From positions 1 to 64,000 of the forward strand of contig NZ_BBXE01000038.1 of NCBI RefSeq assembly GCF_001570565.1: a DNA stretch of 64,000 nt, in the 5' to 3' direction. Position 1 is the first letter of the stretch, and each line of letters starts with the position of its first letter. Source of the stretch: Herbidospora yilanensis. GTDB taxonomy: Bacteria > Actinomycetota > Actinomycetes > Streptosporangiales > Streptosporangiaceae. Made by a program: the position numbers and the translations under genes. The notes under the pieces are model-generated. The model was given only the letters and a program-made list of their open reading frames with translations, did not search any database and was not told the origin of the DNA. This document shows positions 125 to 20,561 of the stretch, piece by piece.

Positions 125-382
125 TCAGTACCCCGTCCGCGCCGAGTCCAGCAGCGCCGACAACCGCGTCCACAACGACCCCACCGTCGCGAACGTCTCC
201 TCGTCGAGGATGTCGTCGGGCAGTTCCCGGTCGTACCCGTCCTCCAGATCGACCAGCAACTGCACCACCCCCATCGAATCCAGCCCGAGCGCGGTGAGAT
301 CGTCACCGGGAGCCAGGTCACCCGGGCCGGCGTAGGGCAGGTGCCGGCGGAGAATGGCCTGGAACTCGTGAGGTATTTCCAT
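125..382 (-). CDS. stand-alone acyl/peptidyl carrier protein
   Basis: An 85-residue protein with the carrier signature LGLDSMG; Ser36 is the expected phosphopantetheine attachment site, followed by the usual VxLLVDLEDGY helix. ATG at 382 is preceded by GGAGA at 6 nt; a GTG at 385 is also possible. It lies directly upstream of the cut adenylation gene, so it is the likely loading partner of that enzyme. It is divergent from the condensation-domain gene at 574, which suggests it donates its acyl or aminoacyl group to that protein. The main operon has its own ACP at 19.5 kb, so two carrier pools exist. Confidence 0.85.
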   Translation of the reverse strand: MEIPHEFQAILRRHLPYAGPGDLAPGDDLTALGLDSMGVVQLLVDLEDGYDRELPDDILDEETFATVGSLWTRLSALLDSARTGY

Positions 383-385
383 CAC

Positions 386-4237: not shown

Positions 4238-5185
4238 TCACGCGCCGCCGGCCAGGAACGTGCGCGCCGCCTGCACACCCGCCTGGAACCTGCTGGTGGC
4301 CTCCAGGTCACGCATCAGAGTGGCGATGTGCCGGCGGCAGCTCCGCACCGACATGCCGAGCTTGCGGGCCACCACCTCGTCGGTGTAGCCCTTCGCCATC
4401 AGCCCCGCGATGGCCTGCCGCAGGTCGTCGGCGACGTTCGCGTAGCCGGACTCGGCGCCCTCCAGCGGCGTCGCGGTGTCCCACAGGTGGTCGAACAGGT
4501 CGAGCAGGAACCGCACGATGCCGTCGTTGTGCACCCGCGCCACGTTGGTCTCGCCGTCCGACAGGCCGAACAGCACGACCAGCGTGCGGTCGAAGACGAC
4601 CGCGGAGCGCGGCACGTGACTGACCGTGCCGATGGCCGCGCCCGCGTCGATGAGCTGCTTCAGCTTCATCCGGGTGGCCAGGTCGGCCCGGTTCCGGTGC
4701 TGGCAGACGATCCGCACGGTGACGCCGCGCGAGAGCAGCGGCAGGTAGGCCCGCGCGAGCTCCTCGGCGTCGTCCTCACCGGACTGCAGGACCAGCACCT
4801 CGGTACGGCAGGCGTCCCCGGCCATCTTGAGGAAGCCGCGCACCTCCAGCGACCCGGCCAGGTACTCGATCGGCGACGGCGCGGGGCCGACGAAGTCCCG
4901 GATCTGGTCGATCAGCTCCCGCCGCTGGTAGATCTCCCGTTCGACCGAGGAGACCAGCGCGTTGGCCGCGACCTGCGGGTCGACCGGGATGAACCGGTGG
5001 GCGGCGCCGTCCACGGCGCGTAACAGGCGGCTCTCGACGAGCTGGTTCACCGCCTCGTTCAGCTCGCGCATGCCGATGCCGAGCTCGCCGGCCGCCACGT
5101 CGAGACCGTCGATGGCGCCTTTCCTGGTCGCGTATCGGTAGACACCCGCGATGTCGGCGGGCCATTTGGTGGTCGAATTCATCAT
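4238..5185 (-). CDS. LuxR-type transcriptional regulator with TrmB-like N-terminus
   Basis: 315 residues. The N-terminal ~60 residues form a winged-helix-like segment (GIGMRELNEAVNQLVESRLL), a middle sensor-like domain resembles TrmB/PLD-type effector domains, and the C-terminal LuxR helix-turn-helix reads GYTDEVVARKLGMSVRSCRRHIATLM. No receiver domain is present. ATG at 5185 (or 5182) has GAGGAGG at 8 nt. It is the last gene of the 16-kb minus-strand operon, 13 nt after the exporter permease, so probably a feedback or export-linked regulator. A TTA codon (5021-5023, codon 55) marks it as a possible bldA target. Confidence 0.85.
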   Translation of the reverse strand: MMNSTTKWPADIAGVYRYATRKGAIDGLDVAAGELGIGMRELNEAVNQLVESRLLRAVDGAAHRFIPVDPQVAANALVSSVEREIYQRRELIDQIRDFVGPAPSPIEYLAGSLEVRGFLKMAGDACRTEVLVLQSGEDDAEELARAYLPLLSRGVTVRIVCQHRNRADLATRMKLKQLIDAGAAIGTVSHVPRSAVVFDRTLVVLFGLSDGETNVARVHNDGIVRFLLDLFDHLWDTATPLEGAESGYANVADDLRQAIAGLMAKGYTDEVVARKLGMSVRSCRRHIATLMRDLEATSRFQAGVQAARTFLAGGA

Positions 5186-5198
5186 GTGTGCTGCCTCC

Positions 5199-6341
5199 TC
5201 AGAGGGTTCTCGTTCGTCGGCTGAACAGGACAAGGGACAGGCTCAGCAGAACGGCGGCCATCAGGCCCAGGACGGCGACTTCGAGCAGCACGTCGCCGAG
5301 TCCCGTCCCGGGCCGGGACAGGGTCAGGAGGGCGTCCATTCCCCAGGCGTGCGGGAAAAGGTGGCCGATGGCGTTGAGCGTCTGGCCGGCGGCCTCGGCG
5401 GGCCACAGGCAGCCGCCGAGCATGCCGAGCACGATGCCGAGCGGCGGCCCGATCGCGGACGGCTGCGCCGAGGAGCGGACCAGGCTGCCCATCAGGATCG
5501 CGGCGCCGGTGGCGACCAGCGCGAAGACGCCCACGACGGCGGCGACGCCGAACGGCTCGCCCCAGGAGACGCCGAACAGCAGCGAACTCACCACCATGAT
5601 CAGCACCGCCTGGGCGGCGGCCACGATGAAACGGCTGAGCGCCTCGCCGAACAGGACGGCCCCGCGCCGCACCGGGGCGGTGAAGGCCCGGGGCAACATG
5701 CCGATGCGGCGGCTCTCGACGAGCGCGGCGGCGACGGCCATGGAGTTGATGAACGTGAACAGCAGCAGGTTGGCCGGGGCGGTGTAGGCGAAGCCCCGCG
5801 GGGTGTCGGATGCCGTGTCGGAGTTGACCACCTCGACGTCGGCCGAGGCGGCCTGCGCCCTGCGCACCAGTTCGGCGGCCTGGGCCGGGGTCGCGCCGGC
5901 CGAGGTGGCGGCGCGGGTGGCCTCGATGACGCCGGCGACCCGGCCGACGGAGGCGTCGACGGCGCTGCGGGCGGCCATGCCGCTGCCGCTGGACTGGGTC
6001 ATGACCAGCTCGAACCTGGTCGAGCCCGGCGGGATGACGACTCCGGCGGCCAGCGCGCCGCCCCGGACGCCGGCCCGCAGCTCCTCCTCGCCGCCGACGG
6101 CGGTGATCTCCAGGTCGGGGTGCGCGCGCAGTTCCGCCAGGACGGCGGCGGCCACGGGGTCTGAGTCCTGGGCCACCACGCCGACCGGCAGCCGGGAGGC
6201 GGCGGCGCCGCCGCCCAGCGCCATGCCGACGAAGATGATGCTGACGAACGGCATCACCACGATGAAGAACAGGCCCACCCGGTCGCGGGAGTGGCGGCGC
6301 AGGTTGGCGGCGACCAGCGCGAGAACGGGGTGCGGTCTCAT
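5199..6341 (-). CDS. ABC-2 type transporter permease (DrrB-like)
   Basis: 380 residues with one N-terminal membrane helix (VGLFFIVVMPFVSIIFVGMAL), a long extracytoplasmic loop, then five C-terminal helices ending in an ABC-2 core, the YhgE/DrrB layout. Its start overlaps the preceding permease stop (ATGA). Together with the next permease and the ATPase it would form a heteromeric exporter for the cluster product, which may give self-resistance. The ending RRTRTL is basic and cytoplasmic. Confidence 0.9.
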   Translation of the reverse strand: MRPHPVLALVAANLRRHSRDRVGLFFIVVMPFVSIIFVGMALGGGAAASRLPVGVVAQDSDPVAAAVLAELRAHPDLEITAVGGEEELRAGVRGGALAAGVVIPPGSTRFELVMTQSSGSGMAARSAVDASVGRVAGVIEATRAATSAGATPAQAAELVRRAQAASADVEVVNSDTASDTPRGFAYTAPANLLLFTFINSMAVAAALVESRRIGMLPRAFTAPVRRGAVLFGEALSRFIVAAAQAVLIMVVSSLLFGVSWGEPFGVAAVVGVFALVATGAAILMGSLVRSSAQPSAIGPPLGIVLGMLGGCLWPAEAAGQTLNAIGHLFPHAWGMDALLTLSRPGTGLGDVLLEVAVLGLMAAVLLSLSLVLFSRRTRTL

Positions 6342-7516
6342 CCGAGGAGTCCCTTCCTGAAGCCCGTCGCGGCGAGCCCGAAGGCGGCCGCGGCGATCGC
6401 GCACAGGACGCCGATCGGCAGGGCCACCGAGGCCAGGCCCGCGCCCGAGCCGGCCAGGCCGGTGAGCCCGGTGGTGGTCCAGGCGTTCGGGGTGAACAGG
6501 GCGATCTGCTGGAGCAGGTCCGGCAGGGTGTAGAGCGGGACCAGGCTGCCGCCGAAGAACGCGGCCACGAAGGAGATCACCATGATCACTCCGTCCGCCT
6601 GGGCGTCGGTCCTGGCGCGGCTGGCGACCAGCATGGTGATCGCGGTGGCGGCCAGCACGTGCGCGAGCAGGAGGGTGAACACGGCCACCGGGTCGCCCCA
6701 GGTGGAGCCGAAGATCAGCACCGAGGAGGCCCAGGTGACGCAGACGCTGACCATGGCGAGCACGAACCCGACGACGGCCTTGCCCGCGATCGGGACCCAG
6801 CCGTGGATCGGCCCGGCGCGCATCCGGTCCAAGGTGCCCTGTTTGCGTTCGATCAGCAGGCCGCGGAAGGACGCGCCGACCACGAAGAAGGCGAACAGCG
6901 CGGCCATGCCGGCGCCGTAGTAGACCGACAGGTCGACCCTGCCGCCGGCCATCGGGTCGTTCTCCAGGGTCAGGGCCGGCCCGGCCGCGCCGTTGCGCTC
7001 CACGAACTCCTTGACCTCGGCGGCGGGCACGCCCGCGTCCAGGGAGGCGCGGACCGCGAGCGTGCGGGCCCGCACCAGGCTGGAGATCCGGTCCACCACG
7101 GCGTTCGCGACCACCCCAGCCAGCGGCGTGTCCGCCGAGGTCAGCACGCCGACCTGGCCGCCCTCGCCCGCGCCGACGCTGTCGCTGAACCCGGCGGGGA
7201 AGATGATCGCGGCCCCGATGTCGCCCGCGTCGAGGGCGCTCTGGGCCTGCTCACGGCCGGGCAGGTCGCGCAGCGTCAGCACACCCTCCAGCTCCGTGGA
7301 CGCCAGGACCTCGCGGCGGACACCGGCGGGGAACTCGCCGCCGTCCAGGTCGACCATGCCGATGGTGGCCCGCAGCGGCGGGTCGTCACCGCCGAGCGCC
7401 ACCCCGAACAGGGTGGCCATGGCCACCGGCACGATGATCGCGATGATCAGGGCGGTCCGGTCCCGCACCCGGGTCCGGAGCTCCAGGGCGCTCACCGTGA
7501 GAAGCGATCGCAACAT
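6338..7516 (-). CDS. ABC-2 type transporter permease
   Basis: 392 residues, same architecture as its neighbour: an N-terminal helix (TALIIAIIVPVAMATLFGVAL), a large external domain and a helical ABC-2 membrane part. It shares family but only partial similarity with the downstream permease, consistent with an old duplication and a heterodimeric pore. The start is 1 nt from the ATPase stop. Confidence 0.9.
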   Translation of the reverse strand: MLRSLLTVSALELRTRVRDRTALIIAIIVPVAMATLFGVALGGDDPPLRATIGMVDLDGGEFPAGVRREVLASTELEGVLTLRDLPGREQAQSALDAGDIGAAIIFPAGFSDSVGAGEGGQVGVLTSADTPLAGVVANAVVDRISSLVRARTLAVRASLDAGVPAAEVKEFVERNGAAGPALTLENDPMAGGRVDLSVYYGAGMAALFAFFVVGASFRGLLIERKQGTLDRMRAGPIHGWVPIAGKAVVGFVLAMVSVCVTWASSVLIFGSTWGDPVAVFTLLLAHVLAATAITMLVASRARTDAQADGVIMVISFVAAFFGGSLVPLYTLPDLLQQIALFTPNAWTTTGLTGLAGSGAGLASVALPIGVLCAIAAAAFGLAATGFRKGLLG

Positions 7517-7517
7517 G

Positions 7518-8456
7518 TCAGTCCCTGAGCGTGCTGCCGGTGAGGTGCAGGAAGGTGGCCTCAAGGTCGGGTTCGACGACCTCGACGGCGGTGACGGCGG
7601 CGATGCCGTCGACCGTGGAGATGACCGAGGGCAGCAGGTACCGGCCGCCTTCGGCGATCAGCCGGATCGACCCGGCCGCGGTGCGGACCGCCTCGGTGAC
7701 GCCGCCCAGGCCGCGGAGCTTGGCGAGCGCGGTCTCGACGTCGCCGTCCAGGGTGAGCTCGATCCGGTCGGCCCCGCCGACCAGCTCGACCAGCTCGTGG
7801 CGGGTGCCCTCGGCGACGATGGAGCCGTGGTCGATGATGGCGACCCGGTGACAGATGCGCTCGACCTCCTCCATGTAGTGGGAGGTGTAGAGCAGGGCCA
7901 TGCCGTCGGCCACCAGGCGTTCGAGGCCGTCGAGGATGGACTTGCGGCTCTGCGGGTCGACACCGACGGTGGGCTCGTCCAGGATGAGCAGTTCGGGCCG
8001 GTGCAGCAGGGCCGCGCCGATGTTGATGCGCCGCTTCATGCCGCCGGAGTAGGTGTCGAGTTTGGCGTCGGCGCGGTCGGCGAGCCCGACCATGTCGAGC
8101 ACCTCCGCCACCCGCCCGCGCACCTCCCTGCGCGGGAGACCGAACAGGCGGCAGAAGAAGCGCAGGTTCTCCCGGCCGGTCAGATCCGGGTAGAGGGCGA
8201 TCTCCTGCGGGACGTAACCGATCTTCGCCTTGGCCGCCATCGGGTCGGCCGAGAGGTCCGCGCCGCCGACCACGACCGTGCCCGCGTCGGGCTTGAGCAG
8301 GCCGACCAGCATGGAGATCGTGGTGGTCTTGCCGGCGCCGTTCGGGCCCAGCAGCCCGTAGGCCTCCCCCGGCGCGATGGTGAACCCGACGTCGCGCACC
8401 GCGGCCACGCCGCCGTAACTCTTGCTGAGGTTCGCACAGGTCAGCGCGTTGGTCAT
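7518..8456 (-). CDS. ABC transporter ATP-binding protein (DrrA-like)
   Basis: 312 residues with all nucleotide-binding motifs: Walker [10 protein letters not shown], signature YSGGMKRR, Walker [13 protein letters not shown] and H-loop YTSHYMEE. The C-terminal ~90 residues are the DrrA-type accessory domain. It powers the two ABC-2 permeases downstream. The start ATG overlaps the beta-helix gene stop (ATGA), so exporter and pathway are translated as one coupled unit. Confidence 0.95.
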
Positions 8457-9457
8457 GGCCGCCACCCCACCGCTTCGCCGGGCTCTCCCTTGGCGGCCAC
8501 GTTGCCGGCGAAGGTCTGGAGCCCGAGGTCGACGCCGAGCTGGTAGTCCAGCGGCGTGTTGCCGGTGACCCTGTTCCAGAGGACGTGGTTGGCCACCGCG
8601 TCGTCGCCGCCCCAGCCCTTGGACGAGCCCATCACGAACGCGGCGCCCATCACGGACTCGCCGCTGGGGTGGTTGTCGTGGACGTCGTTGTCGACCACGC
8701 AGACCCGCTCGGTGCCGATCAGCGCGATCCCCACCCCCGAGATCGGCGGGCCCGCCGCGCCCAGCGCGCCGGGATCGTCGCCGCCGGAGGCCAGGTCGTT
8801 GCCGTGGACGTCGTTGCCGGCGACCAGGCAGTCCCGCACGCCGCCGTCCGGCTCCCCCTCGTAGGTCTGGTTGAGCAGCATCAGCCCGATCGCGTTGCCG
8901 TGGCTGACGTTGCGCAGCACCCGCACCCCGCTGGAGTTGTCGACGAACACGCCGAACGCGTTGGCGAAGGTCTCGTTGCCCTCGATGAGCGCCTCGCCCC
9001 GGCCGCAGAAACTGACCGCGACGCCGCCGTACTGGCTGCCGGAGGCCCGGCACCGGAGCACTTCGCAACCGGTGCCCTCCCGCACGTAGACACCCCAGAC
9101 GGCGTTGTCCACGGCCGTCACGTCCCGGACGGCGAGGCCGGTGACGGAGTGCGCGTAGACACCGGCGCCGGAGAAGCCGCGCACCGTGAGCCCGGCGACG
9201 GTGACGTCGCGGACGCCGTGCGCGACGACGCCGGAGACCACGTCCTCGCCCGCGTCGTGCAGGCCCGGGACGTCGGGGCGGAGCCCTGGTCCGGGGAGCA
9301 GCACGGCCCCTTCCCCGCACAGGGTCACCCCGTCGTGCCTGATCCAGACGTTCCCCGGGTACTCCCCCGCGGCAAGCAGGATCGTCGCGCCGGGGCCCGC
9401 CTCGTCCAGGGCGGCCTGGATCGACCCGCCGGGCCGGACGGTTCTGGTCGTGGACAT
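8453..9457 (-). CDS. right-handed parallel beta-helix protein (NosD-like fold)
   Basis: 334 residues built of short repeats with regularly spaced G/N turns (for example VLRNVSHGNAIGLML and VVDNDVHDNHPSG), typical of pectate-lyase/NosD beta-helices. It begins with the usual GGSIQAALDEAGPGATILLAAGEYPG entry strand. There is no signal peptide, so it probably acts in the cytoplasm. Its TGATG junction with the upstream AcpS-like gene and ATGA junction with the exporter ATPase place it firmly in the operon. The family includes lyases, epimerases and isomerases; no catalytic set can be named here. Confidence 0.85.
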   Translation of the reverse strand: MSTTRTVRPGGSIQAALDEAGPGATILLAAGEYPGNVWIRHDGVTLCGEGAVLLPGPGLRPDVPGLHDAGEDVVSGVVAHGVRDVTVAGLTVRGFSGAGVYAHSVTGLAVRDVTAVDNAVWGVYVREGTGCEVLRCRASGSQYGGVAVSFCGRGEALIEGNETFANAFGVFVDNSSGVRVLRNVSHGNAIGLMLLNQTYEGEPDGGVRDCLVAGNDVHGNDLASGGDDPGALGAAGPPISGVGIALIGTERVCVVDNDVHDNHPSGESVMGAAFVMGSSKGWGGDDAVANHVLWNRVTGNTPLDYQLGVDLGLQTFAGNVAAKGEPGEAVGWRP

Positions 9458-9930
9458 CAGGCGTCCTTCCTGTCGACGTAGACGACGGCGAGGGAGACGA
9501 GCAGCCCCGCGCCGCTCCCCCAGCGGGCCGCGCCCGCCACCTGGCCCTGCCCGGCGGCCAGGCGGAGACGGGCGGCCTCCCGGCAGGCGCCGCGCAGGAT
9601 GTACGCCGCGCCGGCGGCCAGGGCCAGGCCGGTGGCGGCGGTGAGCTCGGCGGCCGCCTCGTCGAGCAGCTCGCCGGCCCAGAGCGGCGGCGGCTCCGGC
9701 GCGGCCTCGAAGTCGTGCCAGCTGAAGCCGGGCGGGCGGCCCCCGACGGCCTTGATGAAGCTCTCCTTGACCGGGAACGTCGCCGTGCCCGGGCCGCGGT
9801 CATGTTCGGCGAGGGTGGTGAGGTGGCGGGCGAAGGTCACGCCGCCGCGCGCGACGGCACGGGTCAGCCGGTCGGCCGAGACGATGTCCACCCCGATCAG
9901 GACGGCGGGCGTGGTCATGCGGGTGGTCAT
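9457..9930 (-). CDS. AcpS-type 4'-phosphopantetheinyl transferase
   Basis: 157 residues. The AcpS motif GVDIVSADRL (residues 13-22, metal-binding D15) and the second motif FPVKESFIKAVGG (K55, E56) are present, followed by a GFSWHDFE strand, as in discrete holo-ACP synthases. Predicted to transfer phosphopantetheine from CoA to the carrier proteins of the cluster. Start ATG at 9930 overlaps the alpha/beta-hydrolase stop; an in-frame ATG at 9918 is an alternative. The protein is slightly longer than AcpS and has a hydrophobic C-terminal tail. Confidence 0.75.
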   Translation of the reverse strand: MTTRMTTPAVLIGVDIVSADRLTRAVARGGVTFARHLTTLAEHDRGPGTATFPVKESFIKAVGGRPPGFSWHDFEAAPEPPPLWAGELLDEAAAELTAATGLALAAGAAYILRGACREAARLRLAAGQGQVAGAARWGSGAGLLVSLAVVYVDRKDA

Positions 9931-10712
9931 GCCGGCACCCGGCCGTGACGGTCCAGGAACGACTCCAGGATCGCGGTGTACTCGGCGGCCCGTTCGATCA
10001 TCGGGATGTGGCCGCTGTCGGCCACGACGACGACCTCGGCGGCGGGGTAGCCGGCGAGCAGCTCCAGCCAGGGGTCGACGGGGGTCATCCGGTCGTGCCG
10101 CCCCCACACGTACGCGGACGGGCAGCGCACCTTGTCCAGCGCGGGCCTGACCTGGTAGCGGCGGGTTGCCTTGATGCTGCGGGCCATGCTGACCATCGCC
10201 TCTGGCTCCAGCAGCATGGTGCCGACGCCGTCCATCTGCTCCTGGGTGAAGAACCGTTCCTCGCCGTGGAAGAGCGCGGCCATCATCCGGTCGCCGAACT
10301 CCGCGCCGACCGGCCGCACGCTGGCCCGCCGGTCGAAGCTGAGGCCGACGTCGGGGTCGGGGGTGAGGCCGGGGGCGCCGCTGACCACGATGCCGCGCAC
10401 CCGGTCGGGGTGACGCCCGGCGAGGTCGATCGCGACGAGCCCGCCGAGCGAGTTGGCGCACACGATCACGTCCTGCGCGCCGGCCTCGTCGCAGGCCCGC
10501 AGGAGCGCGTCGCCGAGCCGTTCGATCGACCCGGCCACCCGCCGGTCGAGGGCGCAGATGGCCTCGTGGGTGCGGAGCACCGGCACTCCCGCCGCCGCCA
10601 GGCACCGGTAGGGGTGCTCCCAGATCCAGCCGCCGGCGAACAGCGCGGACATGAACACCACGGCCGGCCGGTCGCCGTCCCCCGGCGCGTGCTCGAAGGT
10701 GAAGTCGGTCAT
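9927..10712 (-). CDS. alpha/beta hydrolase
   Basis: 261 residues of alpha/beta-hydrolase fold: nucleophile elbow CANSLGG (S88), a late Asp in WGRHDRMTPVDPW and the catalytic His in ADSGHIPMIERA. The elbow begins with Ala instead of the first Gly (GxSxG), as in several MhpC/haloperoxidase-like hydrolases. It could act as a thioesterase, ester hydrolase or cyclase releasing the polyketide; no dedicated thioesterase is otherwise visible in the operon. The stop overlaps the start of the AcpS-like gene. Confidence 0.85.
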   Translation of the reverse strand: MTDFTFEHAPGDGDRPAVVFMSALFAGGWIWEHPYRCLAAAGVPVLRTHEAICALDRRVAGSIERLGDALLRACDEAGAQDVIVCANSLGGLVAIDLAGRHPDRVRGIVVSGAPGLTPDPDVGLSFDRRASVRPVGAEFGDRMMAALFHGEERFFTQEQMDGVGTMLLEPEAMVSMARSIKATRRYQVRPALDKVRCPSAYVWGRHDRMTPVDPWLELLAGYPAAEVVVVADSGHIPMIERAAEYTAILESFLDRHGRVPA

Positions 10713-10723
10713 CGTTGCTCCCG

Positions 10724-13759: not shown

Positions 13760-14985
13760 GCCGTCTCCCTGAACAACCGTTCCGCGAAGAACTCGCTGAA
13801 GCCGAATTCGGGCACATCTTCGGGGGCCACCATGTTCAGCAGGCCCGTGACCTGGGCGGCGAAGTTCTTCGCCATCAACCGGCGGGCCCGGCGGCGGCGT
13901 TCCACCGCCTCCTCGCCGAACTCCACGTGCAGCCGGCTGACGATGTCGGCGCCGAACGCGAGCCGGTCGAGCCGGAACTCGCGCTCCCGCACGTACGGCT
14001 CGAACGCCGCCGGCGACCAGTCGTCGGAACCGAGCAGGATGTCGCAGACGGTCCGGGAGTCGCGCATCGCGCAGGAGAGCCCGGTGCCGAGCACGGTGTC
14101 GGCGTTGCCGGCCTCGTCGCCGATCAGCACCACGCCCTCGGCCAGCGGCGGCCCCTCCGGCACGCTCGACACCGACGGCCACACCGACAGCGGCCCGGCC
14201 GGAACGGCCTCGGTGACGGCCTTGCCGCGGTCGGGCAGGCAGTCGAGCTCGAACGCGGCCAGGAATCGTTCGACGCCGCCCTCGCCCCGGTAGCGCAGCT
14301 TGTTCTCGGCGGGGAAGTTCAGGTAGAGGCGGGCGCGGCCGTACCCCTGCGGGAAGACCATGAACATGACGTCGCCCTCGGTGCCCATGGCCTGCACGTC
14401 GGCCGGCCAGGCGTCCAGGCCCTCGACCATCATGCCGCCGCCCCAGTGGTGCATGGAGTTGCGCATGGTGACGCCGATCTGCCGTCCGACGGTGCAGCCC
14501 CGGCCGGTCGCGCCGAGCACCATCCTCGGGCGGATCTCGTGCTCGCCTTCGGCGGTCCGGTAGGTGACGACGGGTTCCCGTCCGGCGGTGACGTGGATGC
14601 GGGAGGCGTCCATCACCAGGCGGGCGCCCGAACCGACGGCCTGGGCGGCCATCAGCTCGCACACCGCGTGGTGCGGGAACGACATCGGGCCGCCGATGCC
14701 GGGGATGAACCCGGTCATGTCCACGGCTTCCACTTCGTCGTCGTCGACCGCCTCGTCCCAGGTCATCCACTCGCGGATCTCCCAGGCTCCGCCCGCTCCG
14801 AAGCAGTCGTAGACGCCGAGCCGCTGCGCCTCGCGGATGCCCCAGGGGGCCAGCCACTCACCGCGGACCAGATCGTGGTAGGCCCGCTGCTTCTCCAGGA
14901 GCACGACCTTGAGCCCACCGGCGGACAGTTTGCAGGCCGCCGACGCGCCCGCGATGCCACCTCCGACGATCACGACATCGGTCAT
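13756..14985 (-). CDS. FAD-dependent oxidoreductase (PHBH-fold)
   Basis: 409 residues. The FAD Rossmann motif VVIVGGGIAGASAACKL is at the N-terminus and the second FAD contact GVVLIGDEAGNADTVLGTGLS around residue 285, as in geranylgeranyl-reductase and halogenase-like flavoproteins. No WxWxIP halogenase motif is seen. It may epoxidise, hydroxylate, dehydrogenate or reduce the polyketide chain. Its position between the nitroreductase and the epoxide hydrolase suggests the three act in sequence. The start overlaps the nitroreductase stop. Confidence 0.85.
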   Translation of the reverse strand: MTDVVIVGGGIAGASAACKLSAGGLKVVLLEKQRAYHDLVRGEWLAPWGIREAQRLGVYDCFGAGGAWEIREWMTWDEAVDDDEVEAVDMTGFIPGIGGPMSFPHHAVCELMAAQAVGSGARLVMDASRIHVTAGREPVVTYRTAEGEHEIRPRMVLGATGRGCTVGRQIGVTMRNSMHHWGGGMMVEGLDAWPADVQAMGTEGDVMFMVFPQGYGRARLYLNFPAENKLRYRGEGGVERFLAAFELDCLPDRGKAVTEAVPAGPLSVWPSVSSVPEGPPLAEGVVLIGDEAGNADTVLGTGLSCAMRDSRTVCDILLGSDDWSPAAFEPYVREREFRLDRLAFGADIVSRLHVEFGEEAVERRRRARRLMAKNFAAQVTGLLNMVAPEDVPEFGFSEFFAERLFRETA

Positions 14986-15704
14986 GCCTCCCACCTCTCC
15001 CAGTACGTGCGTTCCTTCGCGCCGATCCGGTCCGCCGGGCGGAACTCGGTGCCCACCGTGTAGGCGACCGGGATCATGCAGACCTGCGTCACCCCGGACG
15101 GGATGCCCAGCAGCTCGCCGACCTGCCGCTCGTGCGGGATGTGCATGCAGGTGATCGTGCTGCCGAGGCCACGGCTGCGCAGCGCCAGCTGGAAGGACCA
15201 GATGGCGGGGAAGATCGAGCCGTAGAAGATGCTGGCCCGCATCGGGCCGAGCCGGACGTGATGGCCCGGGTCCTCCGGCGGCTTGGTCGACATGCGCTCC
15301 CGCCAGGCGGCGTCGATCGCCTCGATGTCCGGGGGGCGGCCGAGCACGCACGGGATGACCAGGATCGGCACCCGCGCGATCGTCTCGGCCAGCGCGACCA
15401 CCGACTCGTTGTTGCGGCGTGCCTGCGCCGTGTTCCGCCGCCGCCCCGCGTTGGTCCACACGTCGTTGCGGTGGAACAACCAGGACGCCCGGGTCATCTC
15501 GGCGATCTTCTCTTTGACGGCAGGCTCGCTGATCACCAGCCAGCGCCAGTTCTGGTGGTTGTTGGCGGTGGGCGCCTGGACGGCGATCTCCAGGGTCTCC
15601 TCGACGATCTCCCTGGGCACCGGCCGGTCCAGATCCAGGCGGCGGCGTACGGACCGGGTCGTGGTCAGCAGCCGGTCGGTCTCGCTCACCTCGAAGAGGG
15701 TCAT
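14982..15704 (-). CDS. nitroreductase-family FMN oxidoreductase
   Basis: 240 residues. The N-terminal SVRRRLDLDRPVPREIVEETLEIAVQAPTA region is the classic nitroreductase FMN-binding segment (RSxRxF-like, then APTANNHQNW), and GLGSTITCMHIP near residue 180 is the second FMN contact. Family members reduce nitro groups, quinones or enones, or oxidise azolines. In this cluster it could set the redox level of the polyene/enone or oxidise a thiazoline-like ring if sulfur is incorporated. Coupled to the KS gene by a 4-nt overlap. Confidence 0.88.
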   Translation of the reverse strand: MTLFEVSETDRLLTTTRSVRRRLDLDRPVPREIVEETLEIAVQAPTANNHQNWRWLVISEPAVKEKIAEMTRASWLFHRNDVWTNAGRRRNTAQARRNNESVVALAETIARVPILVIPCVLGRPPDIEAIDAAWRERMSTKPPEDPGHHVRLGPMRASIFYGSIFPAIWSFQLALRSRGLGSTITCMHIPHERQVGELLGIPSGVTQVCMIPVAYTVGTEFRPADRIGAKERTYWERWEA

Positions 15705-17941
15705 ATCGCCCCCAGCAGGACGGCGCCGCGCACCGAGCCGGGCGCGGAGCTGAGCACCAGCGCCCGCCGGGCCGGCTCGGGCAGGTCCGGTCGGCTCAGG
15801 TAGTCGGCGAGCCCGCCCGCCACCGGCGTGGCCAGCCCGGTCAGGGCGGGAGCGACCCCGTCCCTGATCGCGAGCGCGGCCAGCACGATGTTCAGGGCGC
15901 CGGTCGCGGCCTGGCAGTCGCCGGTGAGCCCGGCCGACGCGGTCAGCGGCACGCCGGGCAGCGCGGCCAGCACGGAGGCGGCCTCCTCGGCGTCGTCGTC
16001 GCCCCCGGTGGCCGCGCCGACCACCAGGTCGAGCGGCTCGGTGAGCCCGGCGAGCCCGGTGAGCCCGTCGAAGGGGCCGCTGACGTGGCCGGCGCCCAGC
16101 ATCCGCGCGTAGGGGCTGCCGCCCCGCGCCGCGCAGTGGTCGGCCGCCTCCACCACGAACGCGACCGCCGCCGACCCGGGCACCCGTCCCGAATCCCGGT
16201 CGTACGGCGACACGAACACGTCCTGCGGCACCACGCCGACGTGCTCGTCGGCGGCCACCACCAGGACCACGTCCGCCTTGCCGTCCCTGATCATCTCCAC
16301 CGCGCAGGTCAGCGCGATCGACGCCGACGCCCCGCCGTTGCAGATCGTCGTGGTCGGCCCGCGCAGCCCGAGGGTCTGGCAGACCGCGCCGCCGGTGGCG
16401 TTCAGCACCACGTTGGAGAAGCTGAGCACGGCCGGCTTGTTCGGGTTGGCCGCGATGCTGTCGTCGAAGCCGCCGGTGCTCTCCGCCGACCCGGCGCCGG
16501 TGGCGAACACCAGCCCGACGTCGTCGAGTTCCTTCCTGGGCAGCTTCAGCCCGGCGTCCTCCCAGCTCAGCCGGGCGGCCGCGATGGCCATCCTGGACAG
16601 GTTGTTCATGTGCCGCCAGAGGGAGCGGGGCGCGAACGTCCGTCCCTCCAGGGAGGGCCGCGCGCCCAGCGCGTGGCGGCGGGCCAGGACGGCCTCGGTG
16701 GTCTCGGCGATCCCGGCCCCGAGCCCGCTGACCGGCCCGAGCCCGGTGATCACGACCTCGCGCGGCGCCGGTTCCGCCCACTCCCGGTCGGGGCCCGGCG
16801 TGGTCAGAACCAGCGAGACGTTGTTCCCGCCGAACGCGTAGTTGTTGGAGACGACCGTGTCGGTCGACAACTTGCGCGCGAGGTTCGGCACGAAGTCCAG
16901 GTCGCCCGGCACGGCGTCGGCGTCGAAGCCGATCGTGGGCGGCGCGATGCCGTCCCGCAGGGCGAGCACGGCGGCGACCGCCTCGACCGCGCCGGCCGCG
17001 CCCAGGGTGTGGCCGACGAACGACTTGATGCTGCTGGTCGGCACCTGTCCGGCGCGCGGCCCGAAGACCGCGCGCATGACCTTGGCCTCCATCGCGTCGT
17101 TGGCCGGGGTGCCGGTGCCGTGCCCGCTGACGTAGCCGACGTCGTCGGTGGTCAGACCGGCGTCGGCGAGCGCCCGCCGCATCGCGGAGACGCCGCCGCG
17201 GCCGGTGGGGTCGGGGGCGGTGGCGTGGTAGGCGTCGGCCGACAGGCCGTACCCGGCGACCTCGGCCAGCGGGACCGCGCCCCGGGCCAGCGCCAGGTCC
17301 AGCGGCTCCAGCAGCAGGAACGCGGCTCCTTCGCCGAGGTTCAGGCCGTCGGAGTGGCTGTAGGGCCGGCACGGGCCGGTGCTCAGGGCCTTGAGCCCGG
17401 CGAAGCCGGCGTAGGTGCCGAACAGGAGCGGGTCGACGCCGCCGGCCAGGACGGCGTCGGCCTCCCCGGCGCGGATCTTGTCCTTGGCCAGCCCGACCGC
17501 GTTGCCGCCGGCCGCGCAGGCCGTGGACACCAGGATGCGGGGGCCGCGCATGCCCAGCCGGTCGGCGATCACGTCCTGCGTGTGGTGCATGGGCTGGTAG
17601 TGGCCGGCCGCGTCCGGGGTGGCCTGGCACTTGCCGAGGATCATCCCGAACCGGGTGGCGTCGACGCCGGTCAGCCCCGCCTGGGCGATCGCCTGGCGGG
17701 CGGCGATCAGGGCGAGCCCGGCGGTGCGGTCCAGGGCGGTGTCGGGCTCGGGCAACTGCCCGGTGACCCACTCGTCCGGGACCTGTCCGGCGTACCGGGC
17801 CTCGAAGACCTCGAAGGCCGGGTCCTGGATGGGGGTGAGGCCGCCTTGGCCGGCGGTGAGCCGGTGCCAGAACTCCTCGGGGTTTCGGCCGATGGCACAG
17901 ATGACTCCCAGGCCGGTGACGACGACGGGCCGCAGCGCCAT
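15701..17941 (-). CDS. fused ketosynthase-chain-length-factor (KS-CLF) protein
   Basis: 746 residues containing two thiolase-fold ketosynthase units. Unit 1 (about 1-385) has the full Cys-His-His triad: C142 in VSTACAAGG, H274 in SGHGTGTPAND and H311 in VGHTLGAAG. Unit 2 (about 397-746) is shorter; the Cys position is Gly (within CNGGASAS) and the second His is Asp (TGDCQAATG), as expected for a chain-length-factor-type partner. In ordinary type II PKSs these are two separate overlapping genes; here a single reading frame joins them. It would elongate malonyl units on the ACP and, with KR and DH next door, give a reduced or polyene chain. Confidence 0.92.
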   Translation of the reverse strand: MALRPVVVTGLGVICAIGRNPEEFWHRLTAGQGGLTPIQDPAFEVFEARYAGQVPDEWVTGQLPEPDTALDRTAGLALIAARQAIAQAGLTGVDATRFGMILGKCQATPDAAGHYQPMHHTQDVIADRLGMRGPRILVSTACAAGGNAVGLAKDKIRAGEADAVLAGGVDPLLFGTYAGFAGLKALSTGPCRPYSHSDGLNLGEGAAFLLLEPLDLALARGAVPLAEVAGYGLSADAYHATAPDPTGRGGVSAMRRALADAGLTTDDVGYVSGHGTGTPANDAMEAKVMRAVFGPRAGQVPTSSIKSFVGHTLGAAGAVEAVAAVLALRDGIAPPTIGFDADAVPGDLDFVPNLARKLSTDTVVSNNYAFGGNNVSLVLTTPGPDREWAEPAPREVVITGLGPVSGLGAGIAETTEAVLARRHALGARPSLEGRTFAPRSLWRHMNNLSRMAIAAARLSWEDAGLKLPRKELDDVGLVFATGAGSAESTGGFDDSIAANPNKPAVLSFSNVVLNATGGAVCQTLGLRGPTTTICNGGASASIALTCAVEMIRDGKADVVLVVAADEHVGVVPQDVFVSPYDRDSGRVPGSAAVAFVVEAADHCAARGGSPYARMLGAGHVSGPFDGLTGLAGLTEPLDLVVGAATGGDDDAEEAASVLAALPGVPLTASAGLTGDCQAATGALNIVLAALAIRDGVAPALTGLATPVAGGLADYLSRPDLPEPARRALVLSSAPGSVRGAVLLGAI

Positions 17942-17969
17942 ACTGGATCTCCTTACCTGGCGGAACCGA

Positions 17970-19022
17970 TCAGATGATCGGAATGCTCCAGCTCTTGGGC
18001 ACGATGTAAGGGCTGGTCAGCGTGGTCACCCCGGCGCCTTCCACGGTGAGCTCCAGCCCGGCGGCGGCCAGCCCGGCCTCCACCCTGGCCAGGCCGAGCG
18101 TCGTGCCGAGGCCGACGCTGCGCACCGCGAACACCACCTCACCGATGTCCTCGCCGCCGGCCAGGACGCGCGCGCCCGGCTCGGGCACGGTGTCGCCGCC
18201 GGAGAAGCCGACGGTCCTGCGGCCCTGCCGGGACTCGAACGCGGCGAGCACGGCCTCCTTGCCGACGAACTCGTCCTTGGTGACGTCGACCAGCCAGTTG
18301 GCGCCGATCTCGATCACGTTGACGTCGCCGGCGGTCTCCAGCCGGGGGATGGGCTGGCGCACCTCCAGCATGGCCAGCTCCAGCGCCTCCTGCCCGGCGG
18401 GCGTGACGTGCTCCAGGGTGGCCAGCCACAGGTCGGCGGCGGACTCGACCGGCACGATCATCTGGTAGCCGTACTCGCCGGTGAACCCGGTCCGGGCGAA
18501 GATGATCTCGACGTCGTTCCACACGGTGTCCGACACCGCCTCGAAGGGCAACGAGGCCAGCTCGCCGTCGATCAGGCGGCCGACCACGCCCCACGCGTAC
18601 GGGCCTTCGAGACCGATCACGGTCAGGTCGGCGGAACGGTCGGCGATCTCCACGCCCTCGTCGCCGACGGCGCGCAGATGCTCAAGCAGCCGGGCGCCCG
18701 CCCCGACCGAGCTCTCCAGCAGCAGGCCGTCCTCCCGGCCGAACGCCAGGACCTGGTCGACGACCCGCCCGTCGTCGTCCAGCACCAGGCTCATCATGCA
18801 GCGCTCGGAGGTCAGGTACTCGACGTCGCGGGCCAGCACCCGCTGCGCGAAGTCCACCGCGGCCGGGCCGCTGATCTCGATCAGCGTGTGGCCGCTCAGG
18901 TCGAGCGCCACCGCCCGTTCCCTGAGCACCTTGTACTCGGCCGACAGGTCGCCGAAGCGGAGCGGGACGGTGGCGTCGCCCACCTGGCCGTACACGGTGT
19001 CCTCGGGGTGCGTGAGCGTCAT
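17970..19022 (-). CDS. GcvT-like folate-binding aminomethyltransferase-family protein
   Basis: 350 residues covering the three GcvT domains. Recognisable motifs are MMSLVLDDDGRVVDQV (the T-protein catalytic Asp segment), FARTGFTGEYGYQ (folate-binding T-G-x-T-G-E) and a C-terminal beta-barrel with GLGTTLGLARVE. No GcvP, GcvH or lipoamide partner is in the window. Family members transfer or remove one-carbon groups via tetrahydrofolate (GcvT, DmdA, sarcosine oxidase domains). Lying between dehydratase and KS genes, it probably performs a one-carbon or demethylation step on the ACP-bound chain or a starter. The GTG-rich region upstream of KS is only 28 nt. Confidence 0.88.
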   Translation of the reverse strand: MTLTHPEDTVYGQVGDATVPLRFGDLSAEYKVLRERAVALDLSGHTLIEISGPAAVDFAQRVLARDVEYLTSERCMMSLVLDDDGRVVDQVLAFGREDGLLLESSVGAGARLLEHLRAVGDEGVEIADRSADLTVIGLEGPYAWGVVGRLIDGELASLPFEAVSDTVWNDVEIIFARTGFTGEYGYQMIVPVESAADLWLATLEHVTPAGQEALELAMLEVRQPIPRLETAGDVNVIEIGANWLVDVTKDEFVGKEAVLAAFESRQGRRTVGFSGGDTVPEPGARVLAGGEDIGEVVFAVRSVGLGTTLGLARVEAGLAAAGLELTVEGAGVTTLTSPYIVPKSWSIPII

Positions 19023-19026
19023 CTGG

Positions 19027-19500
19027 TCACACCTTTCCTGCGGCGGCGTTGCCCGCCGGATCGACGATGGTGAGGATTCCTTCGGCCGCGACCTGGCCGT
19101 CGACCCGGGCCGAGACCCGGAACTCGGCGAAGCCCGCGCCGCCTCCGGTCCGCTCGGCGGTCAGGTTGAGCCGGTCGCCGGGGACGACGGGGCGGCGGAA
19201 CCGCATCGACCTGACCCCGGCCAGGTAGCTGATGCGGCTGGCCCCGGCCAGGGCGAAGACCAGGCCGGCGAGTTGCGCCATGGCCTCGATCATCACCACG
19301 CCAGGCAGCACCGCCTCGGTCGGGAAGTGGCCCTGGAACCACAACTCGGTGCCGGTGACGTTCTTGGTCGCCGTGCCCTTCACGCCGGGTTCGACCCTGC
19401 CGACCCGGTCCAGCAGCAGCATCGGCCAGCGGTGCGGCAGCACCTCGCGGATCTGGTCGTTGCTCAGCCCGGTGACGGGGGCCGCCGCCACGATCGTCAT
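19027..19500 (-). CDS. 3-hydroxyacyl-ACP dehydratase (FabZ/FabA-like hotdog)
   Basis: 157 residues with the FabZ signatures LPHRWPMLLLDRV (catalytic H23) and GHFPTEAVLPGVVMIEAMAQLAG (catalytic E72). It dehydrates beta-hydroxyacyl-ACP to the trans-enoyl form. With no enoyl reductase of FabI type nearby, repeated KR/DH cycles would leave a polyene. ATG at 19500 overlaps the ACP stop. Confidence 0.93.
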   Translation of the reverse strand: MTIVAAAPVTGLSNDQIREVLPHRWPMLLLDRVGRVEPGVKGTATKNVTGTELWFQGHFPTEAVLPGVVMIEAMAQLAGLVFALAGASRISYLAGVRSMRFRRPVVPGDRLNLTAERTGGGAGFAEFRVSARVDGQVAAEGILTIVDPAGNAAAGKV

Positions 19501-19787
19501 GCGGTCGCCCCGAGCCGCGGATCGACCTCGTCGGCGAGGCGGGAGATGGAGCCGAAGACGGCCATCTCGCTGTCGTACAGGGCCACCCCGAACTCGGCCT
19601 CGATCGCGACGTACAGCTCCAGCACGTCCAGGCTGTCGAGTTCGAGGCCGCGCCCGAAGAGCGGCTGGTCGTCGGTGATCCAGTCGGGGTCGACCTCCAG
19701 GTCGAGGCGGGACACGATCATCTTCTTGATCTGGCTGCACGTCTGCTGACGCTCGGCGGCCTTGGCGCGTAGCTCGTCGACGGTCAT
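19497..19787 (-). CDS. acyl carrier protein
   Basis: 96 residues, acidic. The attachment motif LELDSLDVLEL has S52 as the phosphopantetheine site, followed by an acidic helix II (YVAIEAEFGV) that docks KS/KR partners. It is the ACP of the iterative PKS, encoded between ketoreductase and dehydratase. It is distinct in sequence from the NRPS-like carrier at the left edge. Confidence 0.92.
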   Translation of the reverse strand: MTVDELRAKAAERQQTCSQIKKMIVSRLDLEVDPDWITDDQPLFGRGLELDSLDVLELYVAIEAEFGVALYDSEMAVFGSISRLADEVDPRLGATA

Positions 19788-19808
19788 CTGTCCTCCAGGT
19801 TGGGTTCT

Positions 19809-20561
19809 TCAGCCGAGGCCGCCGCCGTGGGCGACCACGACAGAGCCGGAGATGTAGGACGCCTTGTCGGATGCGAGGAAGCTGACGATCGAGGCGATCT
19901 CCTCGGGCCGCCCCATCCGGCCCAGCCGGATGCGGGACTCGTACTGCTTCCTGATCTCGGCGGGCACCTTTCGGGTCATGTCGGTGGCGACGAAACCGGG
20001 CGCGACGACGTTCGCGCGCACCCCGTGGGGGGCGGCCTCGTTGGACAGCGCCTGGGTGAACGCGATGATCGCGCCCTTGGACGCCACGTAGTTGGTCTGG
20101 CCGGGGAAGCCGCCGTCCAGGCCGCTGGTGGAGGACAACGTCACGATCGCGCCGCGGCGCTGGTGCTGCATCAGCCGCAGGGCCTCCCGGCAGGCCAGGA
20201 ACGTGCCGAGCATGTTGACGTCCATCGGCGTGCGGAACTGCTCCAGATTCATCGCGACGAGGTAGCGGTCCAGGGTGATGCCGGCGCTGGTCACCAGGAT
20301 GTCCAGGCGGCCCCGGACGGTGCGGACCTCGCGGAACATGGCCCGCACCGCGTCCTCGTCGGTGACGTCCGCGCGTACGGCCGTCGCGGTGCCGCCGCGC
20401 TCCTCGATGAGGGCTACGACCTCCTTGGCGTCCGCCTCGGAGCGGGCGTAGTTGACGATCACGTGCGCGCCCTCCGCGGCGAGGTCGAGCGCGACGGCCC
20501 GGCCGATTCCGCGGGAGCCCCCCGTAACCAGGGCCACGGAGCCTTCGGCAAACAGCATCAT
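19809..20561 (-). CDS. 3-oxoacyl-ACP reductase (FabG-like SDR)
   Basis: 250 residues with the NADPH motif TGGSRGIGRA, NYARSE substrate-helix start, the catalytic Ser in LSSTSG and YVASK. It reduces beta-ketoacyl-ACP to beta-hydroxyacyl-ACP after each KS cycle. First gene of the long minus-strand operon; its promoter must lie in 20562-20706. ATG at 20561 gives the usual FabG N-terminus. Confidence 0.93.
   Translation of the reverse strand: MMLFAEGSVALVTGGSRGIGRAVALDLAAEGAHVIVNYARSEADAKEVVALIEERGGTATAVRADVTDEDAVRAMFREVRTVRGRLDILVTSAGITLDRYLVAMNLEQFRTPMDVNMLGTFLACREALRLMQHQRRGAIVTLSSTSGLDGGFPGQTNYVASKGAIIAFTQALSNEAAPHGVRANVVAPGFVATDMTRKVPAEIRKQYESRIRLGRMGRPEEIASIVSFLASDKASYISGSVVVAHGGGLG

What the first reader, a model, noticed from the sequence alone, without database searches (positions are those of the whole stretch)
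4238..20561. A 16-kb, tightly coupled operon encoding an apparently new reducing-PKS pathway
Eighteen minus-strand genes, nearly all overlapping by 1-4 nt, combine KR-ACP-DH-GcvT-KS/CLF with nitroreductase, FAD enzyme, epoxide hydrolase, MAT, two AcpS-like proteins, SnoaL/Zn ribbon, hydrolase, beta-helix, exporter and regulator. I do not recognise this gene order as any known product cluster.
Basis: inference. Interest (0 to 1): 0.8.

Follow-up and report, generated by a model that had tools for sequence, protein, structure and literature searches.

The report
GcvT-linked reducing polyketide synthase operon
This is a real, strictly conserved set of genes from soil bacteria that probably builds and decorates an unknown unsaturated small molecule; its core assembly line carries two odd parts, a folate-enzyme look-alike that has lost its folate site and a carrier-activating enzyme apparently divided between two proteins, and a similar core sits on a plasmid of a distant bacterium.

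Summary
In detail: 18 minus-strand genes fill 4238-20561, and 12 of 17 junctions overlap by 1-4 nt. The host is a Herbidospora. The operon recurs, syntenic as far as the held DNA reaches, in 35 loci of other rare actinomycetes.

The cluster is larger than stated. A SARP regulator and an RdmE-like hydroxylase belong on the right; on the left a ligase, an ACP, a C domain and a cysteine-desulfurase-like gene run into the contig edge. Eight of eight relatives examined outside Herbidospora/Acrocarpospora add sugar genes of vancosamine type.

Most likely mechanism: a reducing type II-like PKS (malonyl transferase, fused KS-CLF, KR, FabZ, no enoylreductase) makes a polyene chain, which flavoenzymes, an epoxide hydrolase and a SnoaL-type protein oxidise and cyclise. 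The GcvT-like protein lacks the catalytic Asp in 36 of 36 orthologues; the two AcpS-like proteins carry complementary AcpS motifs. KR-ACP-FabZ-GcvT-KS/CLF recurs on Priestia megaterium plasmids.

The listings of ten paper searches showed no characterised match; MIBiG was not searchable. Product unknown.

The parts
19809..20561 (-). KR: FabG-like ketoreductase, 250 aa
   Evidence: Pfam adh_short_C2 213 bits; G...GIG and Y.ASKG in 36 of 36 orthologues
19497..19787 (-). ACP, 96 aa
   Evidence: PP-binding 35.7 bits; LDSLD in 36 of 36
19027..19500 (-). DH: FabZ-like dehydratase, 157 aa
   Evidence: PRK00006 139.1 bits, cut-off 113; PHR[WY]P and GHFP.....PG in 36 of 36
17970..19022 (-). GcvT-like protein, 350 aa, canonical folate-site residues replaced
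   Evidence: GCV_T 128.9 bits; position of T. maritima Asp96 is Gln90 in 36 of 36
15701..17941 (-). KS-CLF fusion, 746 aa
   Evidence: ketoacyl-synt 158.4 bits; C142, H274, H311 in 35 of 35; CLF-half position 537 never Cys
14982..15704 (-). nitroreductase/BluB-like flavoprotein, 240 aa
   Evidence: PF00881 63.9 bits
13756..14985 (-). FAD-dependent oxidoreductase, 409 aa
   Evidence: FAD_binding_3 62.7 bits; no match at E<=1e-5 in the 20-kb stretch of the divergent cluster L092
12890..13759 (-). alpha/beta hydrolase resembling epoxide hydrolase, 289 aa
   Evidence: Abhydrolase_1 119.6 bits; HDWG 34, NWYR 33 of 34, [GS]H[WY] 34 of 34
11985..12890 (-). AT: malonyl-CoA:ACP transacylase-like, 301 aa
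   Evidence: Acyl_transf_1 133.1 bits; fabD 202.4 bits, below cut-off 260.9; GHS.GE 34 of 34
11563..11988 (-). PPT1: AcpS-like, carries S[VLI]SH but lacks GxD and the Glu of KE
   Evidence: Profile A3: 8 PDB chains at E<=0.1, 6 labelled AcpS/PPTase (best E 6.6e-7) and 2 from entry 2was labelled 3-oxoacyl-ACP synthase; Glu position is R22/Y10/Q1/H1 in 34, S114/S116/H117 in 34 of 34; GxD 0 of 34
10724..11566 (-). SnoaL-like N-terminal domain with C-terminal four-Cys ribbon-like motif, 280 aa
   Evidence: SnoaL 30.1 bits; C..C...C.C motif in 33 of 34
9927..10727 (-). alpha/beta hydrolase (PcaD/thioesterase-like), 266 aa, TTG start
   Evidence: Abhydrolase_6 57.2 bits; G.HDR and GH[IV]P 32 of 32; NS[LMIV]GG 32 of 32 (the first pattern was mis-spaced and matched none)
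9457..9930 (-). PPT2: AcpS-like, carries GxD and KE, lacks SxSH
   Evidence: Profile A2: 6 of 6 PDB chains at E<=0.1 are AcpS, best E 3.7e-7; D15, K55, E56, K60 in 32 of 32; S.[ST]H in 0 of 32
8453..9457 (-). right-handed beta-helix protein, 334 aa
7518..8456 (-). DrrA-like ABC ATPase
   Evidence: ABC_tran 118.9 bits; drrA 284.3 bits, below cut-off 312.45
6338..7516 (-). ABC-2 permease 1
   Evidence: PF12698 110 bits
5199..6341 (-). ABC-2 permease 2
   Evidence: PF12698 121.9 bits
4238..5185 (-). LuxR-like HTH regulator
   Evidence: GerE 20.7 bits, below cut-off 23.5; no match in L057 and L060-L062
20707..22257 (+). RdmE-like aromatic hydroxylase, divergent, co-conserved
   Evidence: FAD_binding_3 295.7 bits; NF046069 420.5 bits, below cut-off 700; present in 35 of 35 loci; no match in L092
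22238..23704 (-). SARP-family regulator, co-conserved
   Evidence: BTAD 152.7 bits; seen in 34 of 35 loci, the missing one being the 6-kb contig L033
3034..4188 (+). cysteine-desulfurase-like PLP enzyme, shared with several Streptosporangiaceae clusters
   Evidence: Aminotran_5 226.5 bits; 70-74% identical in L058, L059, L063
2133..3023 (+). 296-aa protein of unknown family (LPD16 19.6 bits, below cut-off)
574..2136 (+). condensation-domain protein
   Evidence: Condensation 78.2 bits; 49-54% in L058, L059, L063
125..385 (-). second ACP, 86 aa
   Evidence: PP-binding 35.2 bits
1..123 (-). N-terminus of an AMP-forming ligase cut by the contig edge (rest at G000:C30:3-806)
   Evidence: (94% to the H. 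solisilvae ligase, residues 219-486)

Best explanation
The operon is the core of a reducing type II-like polyketide pathway. Inferred steps: (1) the AcpS-like pair PPT1 plus PPT2 activates the ACP, each protein supplying motifs that the other lacks; (2) the malonyl transacylase charges it; (3) the fused KS-CLF elongates, the N-terminal half catalysing (Cys-His-His) and the C-terminal half (no Cys) setting chain length; (4) KR and FabZ-like DH leave a double bond per cycle, and with no enoylreductase in the operon the product is a polyene acyl-ACP; (5) the GcvT-like protein, encoded between DH and KS-CLF, acts on the ACP-bound chain by a chemistry that is not the canonical folate aminomethyl transfer, perhaps ring closure or isomerisation; (6) the flavoenzymes (NTR, FAD, RdmE-like), epoxide hydrolase, SnoaL-type protein and beta-helix oxidise and cyclise it, an alpha/beta hydrolase releases it, and the DrrA-type ABC system exports it. 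Outside Herbidospora/Acrocarpospora an amino-C-methyl deoxysugar is probably attached. Shown: gene content, synteny, intact or lost motifs, distribution. Inferred: every reaction and the product class.
For: KS residues C142/H274/H311 in 35 of 35, CLF-half position 537 G25/N5/A4/E1. KR, DH, AT, ACP motifs in every orthologue read. The order KR-ACP-FabZ-GcvT-KS/CLF, with malonyl transferase and an AcpS-like gene upstream, also on P. megaterium pBM500 (44, 51, 42, 32 and 35% identity). A divergent Nonomuraea cluster (L092) keeps KR to PPT2 and the ABC ATPase and first permease, but FAD, beta-helix and RdmE-like gave no match at E<=1e-5 in its 20-kb stretch, which makes these three look accessory. 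GcvT: catalytic Asp position Gln90 36 of 36, E195 position Q28/K8, R227 position L30/V6; the same genome's true GcvT keeps the canonical residues. AcpS split: PPT1 34 of 34 without the aligned Glu and with SxSH, PPT2 32 of 32 with D15, K55, E56, K60; GxD 0 of 34 in PPT1, S.[ST]H 0 of 32 in PPT2; the genome's own AcpS carries all three motifs in one chain. Sugar cassette families verified in one locus, L077.
Against: No product, expression or enzyme data exist here. No PKS phylogeny was built, so placement among KS-CLF subfamilies is by motifs and profile scores only. No GcvT model of use was obtained (pLDDT 63.2), and in P. megaterium the Asp position is Glu, a change that could keep some function. 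The PPT pair could be inactive or act separately; no complex was modelled, and a profile comparison of PPT1 with PPT2 was not significant (E 0.15). The adjacent type I PKS in Streptosporangiaceae might share the product, in which case the type II part makes only a piece. An enoylreductase from fatty acid synthesis could act in trans, as FabI does in cispentacin (PMC10698177, section 8 read).
Confidence: 0.6

Rival explanations
1. The operon makes a five-membered ring as in cispentacin/coronafacic acid: a KS with a cyclisation-factor partner performs a single elongation and ring closure, and the FabZ-like protein decarboxylates.
For: ACP, FabZ-like and KS halves score against the NCBIfam cispentacin models AmcB 33.6, AmcE 68 and AmcF 258.7 bits.
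Against: All three are far below their cut-offs (80, 140, 325). The ligase AmcH that loads 2-oxoglutarate has no counterpart among the 18 genes. FabZ proper scores better than AmcE (139.1 against 68). A KR and a malonyl transferase are present, neither of which is among the seven amcB-H genes as the paper describes them.
Confidence: 0.1
2. The type II genes are an accessory part of a large type I PKS/NRPS product: they make an acyl unit that ligase, ACP2 and C domain attach to a type I polyketide.
For: In H. solisilvae the operon is followed by CysDes, C domain, ligase and type I PKS modules; in N. dietziae by CysDes, C domain, an A-domain protein and type I PKS; in Planomonospora L058 and Microbispora L063 by CysDes, C domain and KS-like (L063 also AT-like) matches. 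The window's own ligase resumes on contig C30, which holds nine KS hits.
Against: L060-L062 (Saccharothrix, Lentzea, Actinokineospora) show no LuxR, CysDes or C domain within about 14 kb of the permeases, although an A-domain protein and, 14-22 kb away, a type I PKS frame exist in Saccharothrix (L060, L072) whose relation was not tested. The first type I protein of H. solisilvae opens with a KSQ-AT loading module, so the type II product is not its starter. Two neighbouring clusters could simply co-travel.
Confidence: 0.25
3. The GcvT-like protein is a folate-dependent one-carbon enzyme that adds a methylene or methyl branch to the chain (a variant of step 5; it does not exclude the rest of the best explanation).
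For: Full-length GCV_T family match (128.9 bits); its PDB relatives are aminomethyltransferases and demethylases that use tetrahydrofolate (names; cofactor recalled). P. megaterium has Glu at the Asp position.
Against: Residues aligned with T. maritima Asp96, Tyr83, Glu195 and Arg227 are replaced in the window protein, with Asp96 -> Gln in 36 of 36 orthologues and Ile in L092.
Confidence: 0.15

Closest known systems
Priestia megaterium pBM500 cluster (NC_014025.1, uncharacterised as far as seen)
   Same: Same core order fabG-ACP-fabZ-GcvT-KS/CLF fusion, with malonyl transferase and an AcpS-like gene upstream; the 135-aa gene after KS/CLF carries the PPT1 motif pattern
   Different: No NTR, FAD, epoxide hydrolase, SnoaL, beta-helix or ABC exporter annotated in the stretch read; MFS transporter and thioesterase instead; KS/CLF 35% identical. 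The spore paper on this plasmid (PMC4674009, passages only) holds none of the terms acyl carrier, fatty acid, polyketide, glycine cleavage
Highly reducing type II PKS (ishigamide-type KS, 6KXD; name recalled)
   Same: Discrete ACP, KR, DH and KS-CLF; KS half hits 6kxd_A at E 8.8e-57
   Different: KS and CLF fused in one chain; GcvT-like and AcpS-like pair added; 6kxd is not the best PDB hit (9s5h_B, E 1.4e-79)
Cispentacin/coronafacic acid type II PKS-like systems (PMC10698177; sections 4, 7, 8, 9 read)
   Same: Weak profile matches of ACP, FabZ-like and KS
   Different: Below every cut-off; no AmcH ligase in the operon
Freestanding KS-CLF fusions in other clusters (Streptomyces plasmids L012, L013, L098; Lachnospira eligens L096; Pseudalkalibacillus L097)
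   Same: Fused KS-CLF of about 760-800 aa beside ACP and KR, mostly FabZ and FabD
   Different: No GcvT-like gene annotated in those stretches; no clear PPT1 or PPT2 in L012, L013 (best frame E 0.0088)
KS-CLF didomain of PUFA synthases
   Same: KS followed by CLF in one chain (listing)
   Different: There it is part of a multidomain megasynthase (recalled); here it is freestanding

Membership tests
Type II (reducing) polyketide synthase | KS with Cys-His-His plus CLF partner without the Cys | tested here: met
   fused in one chain, which is unusual
Type II (reducing) polyketide synthase | discrete ACP, KR, DH; no enoylreductase family found in the operon | tested here: met
Type II (reducing) polyketide synthase | polyene product | not testable with these tools
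   needs expression
Type II (reducing) polyketide synthase | place in a KS/CLF tree with characterised members | not tested
   no tree built
Cispentacin/CFA-type PKS | AmcB, AmcE, AmcF equivalogs at cut-off | tested here: not met
   33.6/80, 68/140, 258.7/325 bits
Cispentacin/CFA-type PKS | AmcH-type 2-oxoglutaryl ligase in the operon | tested here: not met
   none among 18 genes; the H. solisilvae ligase orthologous to the one at the contig edge matches TIGR03098
GcvT aminomethyltransferase | GcvT equivalog score | tested here: not met
   118.3 against 235.85 bits
GcvT aminomethyltransferase | catalytic Asp and folate-contact residues (roles recalled, positions from the alignment) | tested here: not met
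   Gln90 36 of 36; other positions replaced; control GcvT of the same genome keeps them
AcpS holo-ACP synthase | GxD, KE and SxSH motifs in one chain | tested here: not met
   PPT1 lacks GxD (0 of 34) and the aligned Glu, PPT2 lacks S.[ST]H (0 of 32); genome's AcpS has all
AcpS holo-ACP synthase | homology to AcpS | tested here: met
   PDB profile hits E 6.6e-7 and 3.7e-7; below NCBIfam and Pfam cut-offs
AcpS holo-ACP synthase | phosphopantetheinyl transfer activity, alone or as a pair | not testable with these tools
   needs assay
Vancosamine-type sugar pathway (relatives only; pathway recalled) | 2,3-dehydratase, aminotransferase, C-methyltransferase, epimerase, reductase, GT | tested here: met
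   Pfam/NCBIfam on L077; not in the window

The most novel reading that the evidence does not exclude
The core defines an undescribed PKS family, shared by Actinomycetota and Bacillota, in which a folate-enzyme fold was recruited as a non-folate catalyst working on the growing chain, and in which the ACP is activated by an obligate two-protein AcpS: one subunit brings the metal-binding Asp and Glu, the other the SxSH side of the interface site.
Probability: 0.35. Interest if true: 0.75.

Novelty: new variant of a known kind. Interest (0 to 1): 0.6.

Why it matters
It marks a conserved natural-product family of unknown structure in 35 further public genome loci of rare actinomycetes, with a smaller relative on P. 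megaterium plasmids for testing. Two questions become directly testable: what a GcvT fold does without its folate site in a carrier-protein pathway, and whether a trimeric enzyme such as AcpS can be rebuilt as a two-gene complementary pair. The sugar-bearing and sugar-less versions offer natural comparisons for finding the compound.

Tried and rejected
GcvT structure: the model from 17 sequences was poor (pLDDT 63.2) and was not searched. Beta-helix: good model, but its fold neighbours are carbohydrate enzymes, NosD and phage tailspikes; no catalytic residue was mapped, so no function is claimed.

P. megaterium 135-aa gene as PPT1: phmmer gave one PDB hit at E<=5, AcpS, E 1.3; NCBIfam one hit, PRK14662 PPTase, E 0.014, but Pfam's only hit was PRORP, E 0.023; hhalign to PPT1 not significant, E 0.08 over 20 columns at the RLA.K motif, unrelated control 0.25; the PPT1 HMM ranked it second in its locus at E 1.1 behind an unrelated frame at 0.41. 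The motif pattern matched 43 of 13,082 frames: 42 PPT1 copies (several genomes held twice) and this gene; 0 of 200,000 shuffles of it matched. The pattern was written after seeing the sequence and does not match the genome's own AcpS (one search shows its sequence). I treat it as suggestive only. The PPT2 counterpart is firm (E 7.9e-10; 8.8e-6; ACPS 34.7 bits over a cut-off of 25).

Regex slips: a mis-spaced ABH nucleophile pattern matched 0 of 32 and a mis-spaced GcvT tail pattern 0 of 36; corrected to 32 of 32 and 36 of 36. KSFVGHT matched 24 of 35, GHT 35 of 35. VVDQ matched 32 of 36, while the aligned Gln is 36 of 36. In one search several motif positions I had guessed for DH, EH, AT and ABH were wrong and are not used. 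One PPT1 holds a KE elsewhere in its sequence; the aligned position is never Glu.

Literature: ten searches; rows listed were 1 of 1, 20 of 25, 20 of 26, 6 of 6, 15 of 25, 15 of 64, 4 of 4, 12 of 49, 8 of 14 and 0 of 0. PMC10698177 was read in sections 4, 7, 8, 9, PMC4674009 in passages, the rest only as listings. Viral contigs: 46 pattern matches, none a relative. Phylum draw: KS-CLF at E<=1e-90 in 2 of 396 genomes, one being our own. GT search: 0 of 8 genomes; six of these are Herbidospora including our own, G006 was not in it, and no positive genome was in the set.

Rows dropped: proteins running off the held DNA or with internal stops were left out, hence n from 28 to 36; the PPT2 set includes one mis-called 513-aa start (L044). 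The 9s5h entry's title and organism were not seen.


Full report
Observation. The 18 minus-strand genes are real. 12 of 17 junctions overlap by 1 or 4 nt and five are gaps of 1-28 nt.

Host and distribution. The window is contig C38 of a 7.85-Mb genome. Its same-genus relatives G001-G006 all carry the KS-CLF at 92-96%, and the lengths of the six contigs equal those of six named Herbidospora records, so the host is a Herbidospora. With the GcvT-like alignment, one search returned 35 loci: Herbidospora, Acrocarpospora, Nonomuraea, Planomonospora, Planobispora, Microbispora, Streptosporangium, and Actinoalloteichus, Saccharothrix, Lentzea, Actinokineospora and a strain named Nocardia sp. NRRL S-836 (I place the second group in Pseudonocardiaceae from memory). 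Gene order was the same in 35 of 35 as far as the held DNA reaches (L033, L041 and L045 are short contigs). In the family, 32 of 341 genomes, our own included, and 8 of 68 genera have the GcvT-like protein at E<=1e-100. In an even draw of the phylum, 2 of 396 genomes had the KS-CLF at E<=1e-90, our own and one at 40% identity.

True limits. The RdmE-like hydroxylase (20707-22257, 35 of 35 loci) and a SARP regulator (22238-23704, 34 of 35) travel with the operon. AKR, response regulator and kinase genes follow in Herbidospora, Acrocarpospora and two Nonomuraea (11 loci), UbiA and leuA in nine of these; reading the called proteins of N. dietziae L074 shows the same run there. On the left, the cysteine-desulfurase-like and C-domain genes match at the same place in Planomonospora L058, N. 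dietziae L059 and Microbispora L063, but not in L057 (Streptosporangium) or L060-L062. In H. solisilvae they are followed by a ligase and type I PKS modules. The window begins inside that ligase: an ACP lies at 125-385 and the ligase N-terminus at 1-123, and its remainder opens contig C30 at 94% identity. So the assembly gap, not biology, ends the cluster here.

Sugar cassette. Eight loci outside Herbidospora/Acrocarpospora were examined upstream (8 of 26), and orthologous frames were shared by all eight at the places of a glycosyltransferase and a DegT aminotransferase, read as such in L038 and L047. In L077 (the L042 genome) the set is NDP-hexose 2,3-dehydratase (535.2 bits), DegT (367.2), 3,5-epimerase (172.8), C-methyltransferase (186.6), an NAD-dependent epimerase/dehydratase-family reductase (154.1) and a macrolide-family glycosyltransferase (397.9, cut-off 260). 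This is a vancosamine-type make-up (pathway recalled). The glycosyltransferase was not found in six Herbidospora genomes searched. The loss in Herbidospora is an inference from synteny with N. dietziae (L074).

PKS logic. KS C142, H274 and H311 are invariant in 35 of 35; in the CLF half the Cys position is Gly, Asn, Ala or Glu. ACP, KR, DH and AT motifs are complete in every orthologue read. No dedicated enoylreductase appears among the 18 genes (the KR itself falls in the broad SDR family that Pfam labels enoyl-ACP reductase). From established type II logic this predicts an unsaturated chain; that is inference. The KS half's best PDB hit is 9s5h_B (E 1.4e-79) and the CLF half's is 9s5h_C (E 2.4e-13), a KS/CLF-like pair whose title I did not see.

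GcvT-like protein. It aligns over its length with GcvT. Mapping T. maritima residues through that alignment (numbers counted by me, roles recalled), Tyr83, Asp96, Glu195 and Arg227 correspond to Met77, Gln90, Gln187 and Leu214. Across 36 orthologues these are M28/T8, Q36, Q28/K8 and L30/V6. The genome's own GcvT retains the canonical residues, a matched control. The Asp position is Ile in L092 and Glu in P. megaterium. A C-terminal P-K-S motif (342-344) is invariant in the four-member alignment with L092 and P. megaterium, PKSW occurs in 36 of 36 orthologues, and it is absent from the true GcvT. The protein therefore looks like a distinct subfamily tied to this PKS.

AcpS-like pair. The PPT1 profile hits eight PDB chains, six labelled AcpS/PPTase and two from entry 2was labelled 3-oxoacyl-ACP synthase; the best covers AcpS residues 27-128. 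The PPT2 profile hits six AcpS chains, the best over 6-101. PPT1 always has SxSH, never GxD, and never Glu at the aligned KE position (34 of 34); PPT2 always has the Asp, KE and Lys (32 of 32) and never S.[ST]H. The divergent L092 pair (45% and 30% identical) shows the same split. The housekeeping AcpS has all motifs. Both proteins were complete in 31 of 35 loci; in the other four the held DNA cuts or lacks at least one of the two. AcpS active sites lie between subunits of a trimer (recalled), which makes a complementary pair plausible. No complex was tested.

Second phylum. P. megaterium pBM500 carries fabG, ACP, fabZ, GcvT-like and an 809-aa KS/CLF fusion in that order, with malonyl transferase and a PPT2-like gene upstream; identities to the window are 44, 51, 42, 32 and 35%. 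Four Priestia plasmids have the GcvT-like protein at 99% or more. The 135-aa gene after KS/CLF is a PPT1 candidate on motif grounds only. Fused KS-CLFs without an annotated GcvT occur in Streptomyces plasmids, Lachnospira eligens and Pseudalkalibacillus, so the fusion itself is not special.

Verdict. Known kind (reducing type II-like PKS) with an uncharacterised and distinctive core. The novelty claim is limited to the collections and open papers searched; MIBiG was out of reach.

Noticed in passing
window 1-385 and G000:C30:3-806: The window starts at a contig edge that splits a ligase gene; the cluster continues on contig C30, which holds nine KS hits.
   Followed up: partly
window 2133-3023 (+): 296-aa protein with no clear family (LPD16 19.6 bits, below cut-off); a 296-aa gene with the same weak match lies at the same place in N. 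dietziae L059.
   Followed up: no
window 26631-29633: UbiA-type prenyltransferase and a 2-isopropylmalate synthase next to the cluster, also read in N. dietziae L074; possibly part of it.
   Followed up: no
L096 (Lachnospira eligens plasmid) 8251-13560: A gut bacterium plasmid carries ACP, fused KS-CLF, KR, FabZ and FabD in a row, an apparent reducing type II-like PKS.
   Followed up: no
L012, L013, L098 (Streptomyces plasmids): Clusters with two KS genes, a fused KS-CLF, a KSIII-like gene, thermostable-hemolysin-like, AMP-ligase and TauD genes; near-identical order on three plasmids.
   Followed up: partly
L064:14585-16045 (-): The cluster ligase scores over cut-off for TIGR03098 (exosortase A-associated acyl-CoA ligase, 655.7 against 592.35), odd for a PKS cluster.
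   Followed up: no
L042 about 17.6-19.0 kb: In Streptosporangium amethystogenes about 1.4 kb lies between PPT1 and the SnoaL gene, which adjoin in the other loci.
   Followed up: no
L060 and L072 (Saccharothrix sp. S26): An A-domain protein and a type I PKS frame lie 14-22 kb beyond the permeases; whether they are related to the Streptosporangiaceae type I PKS was not tested.
   Followed up: no
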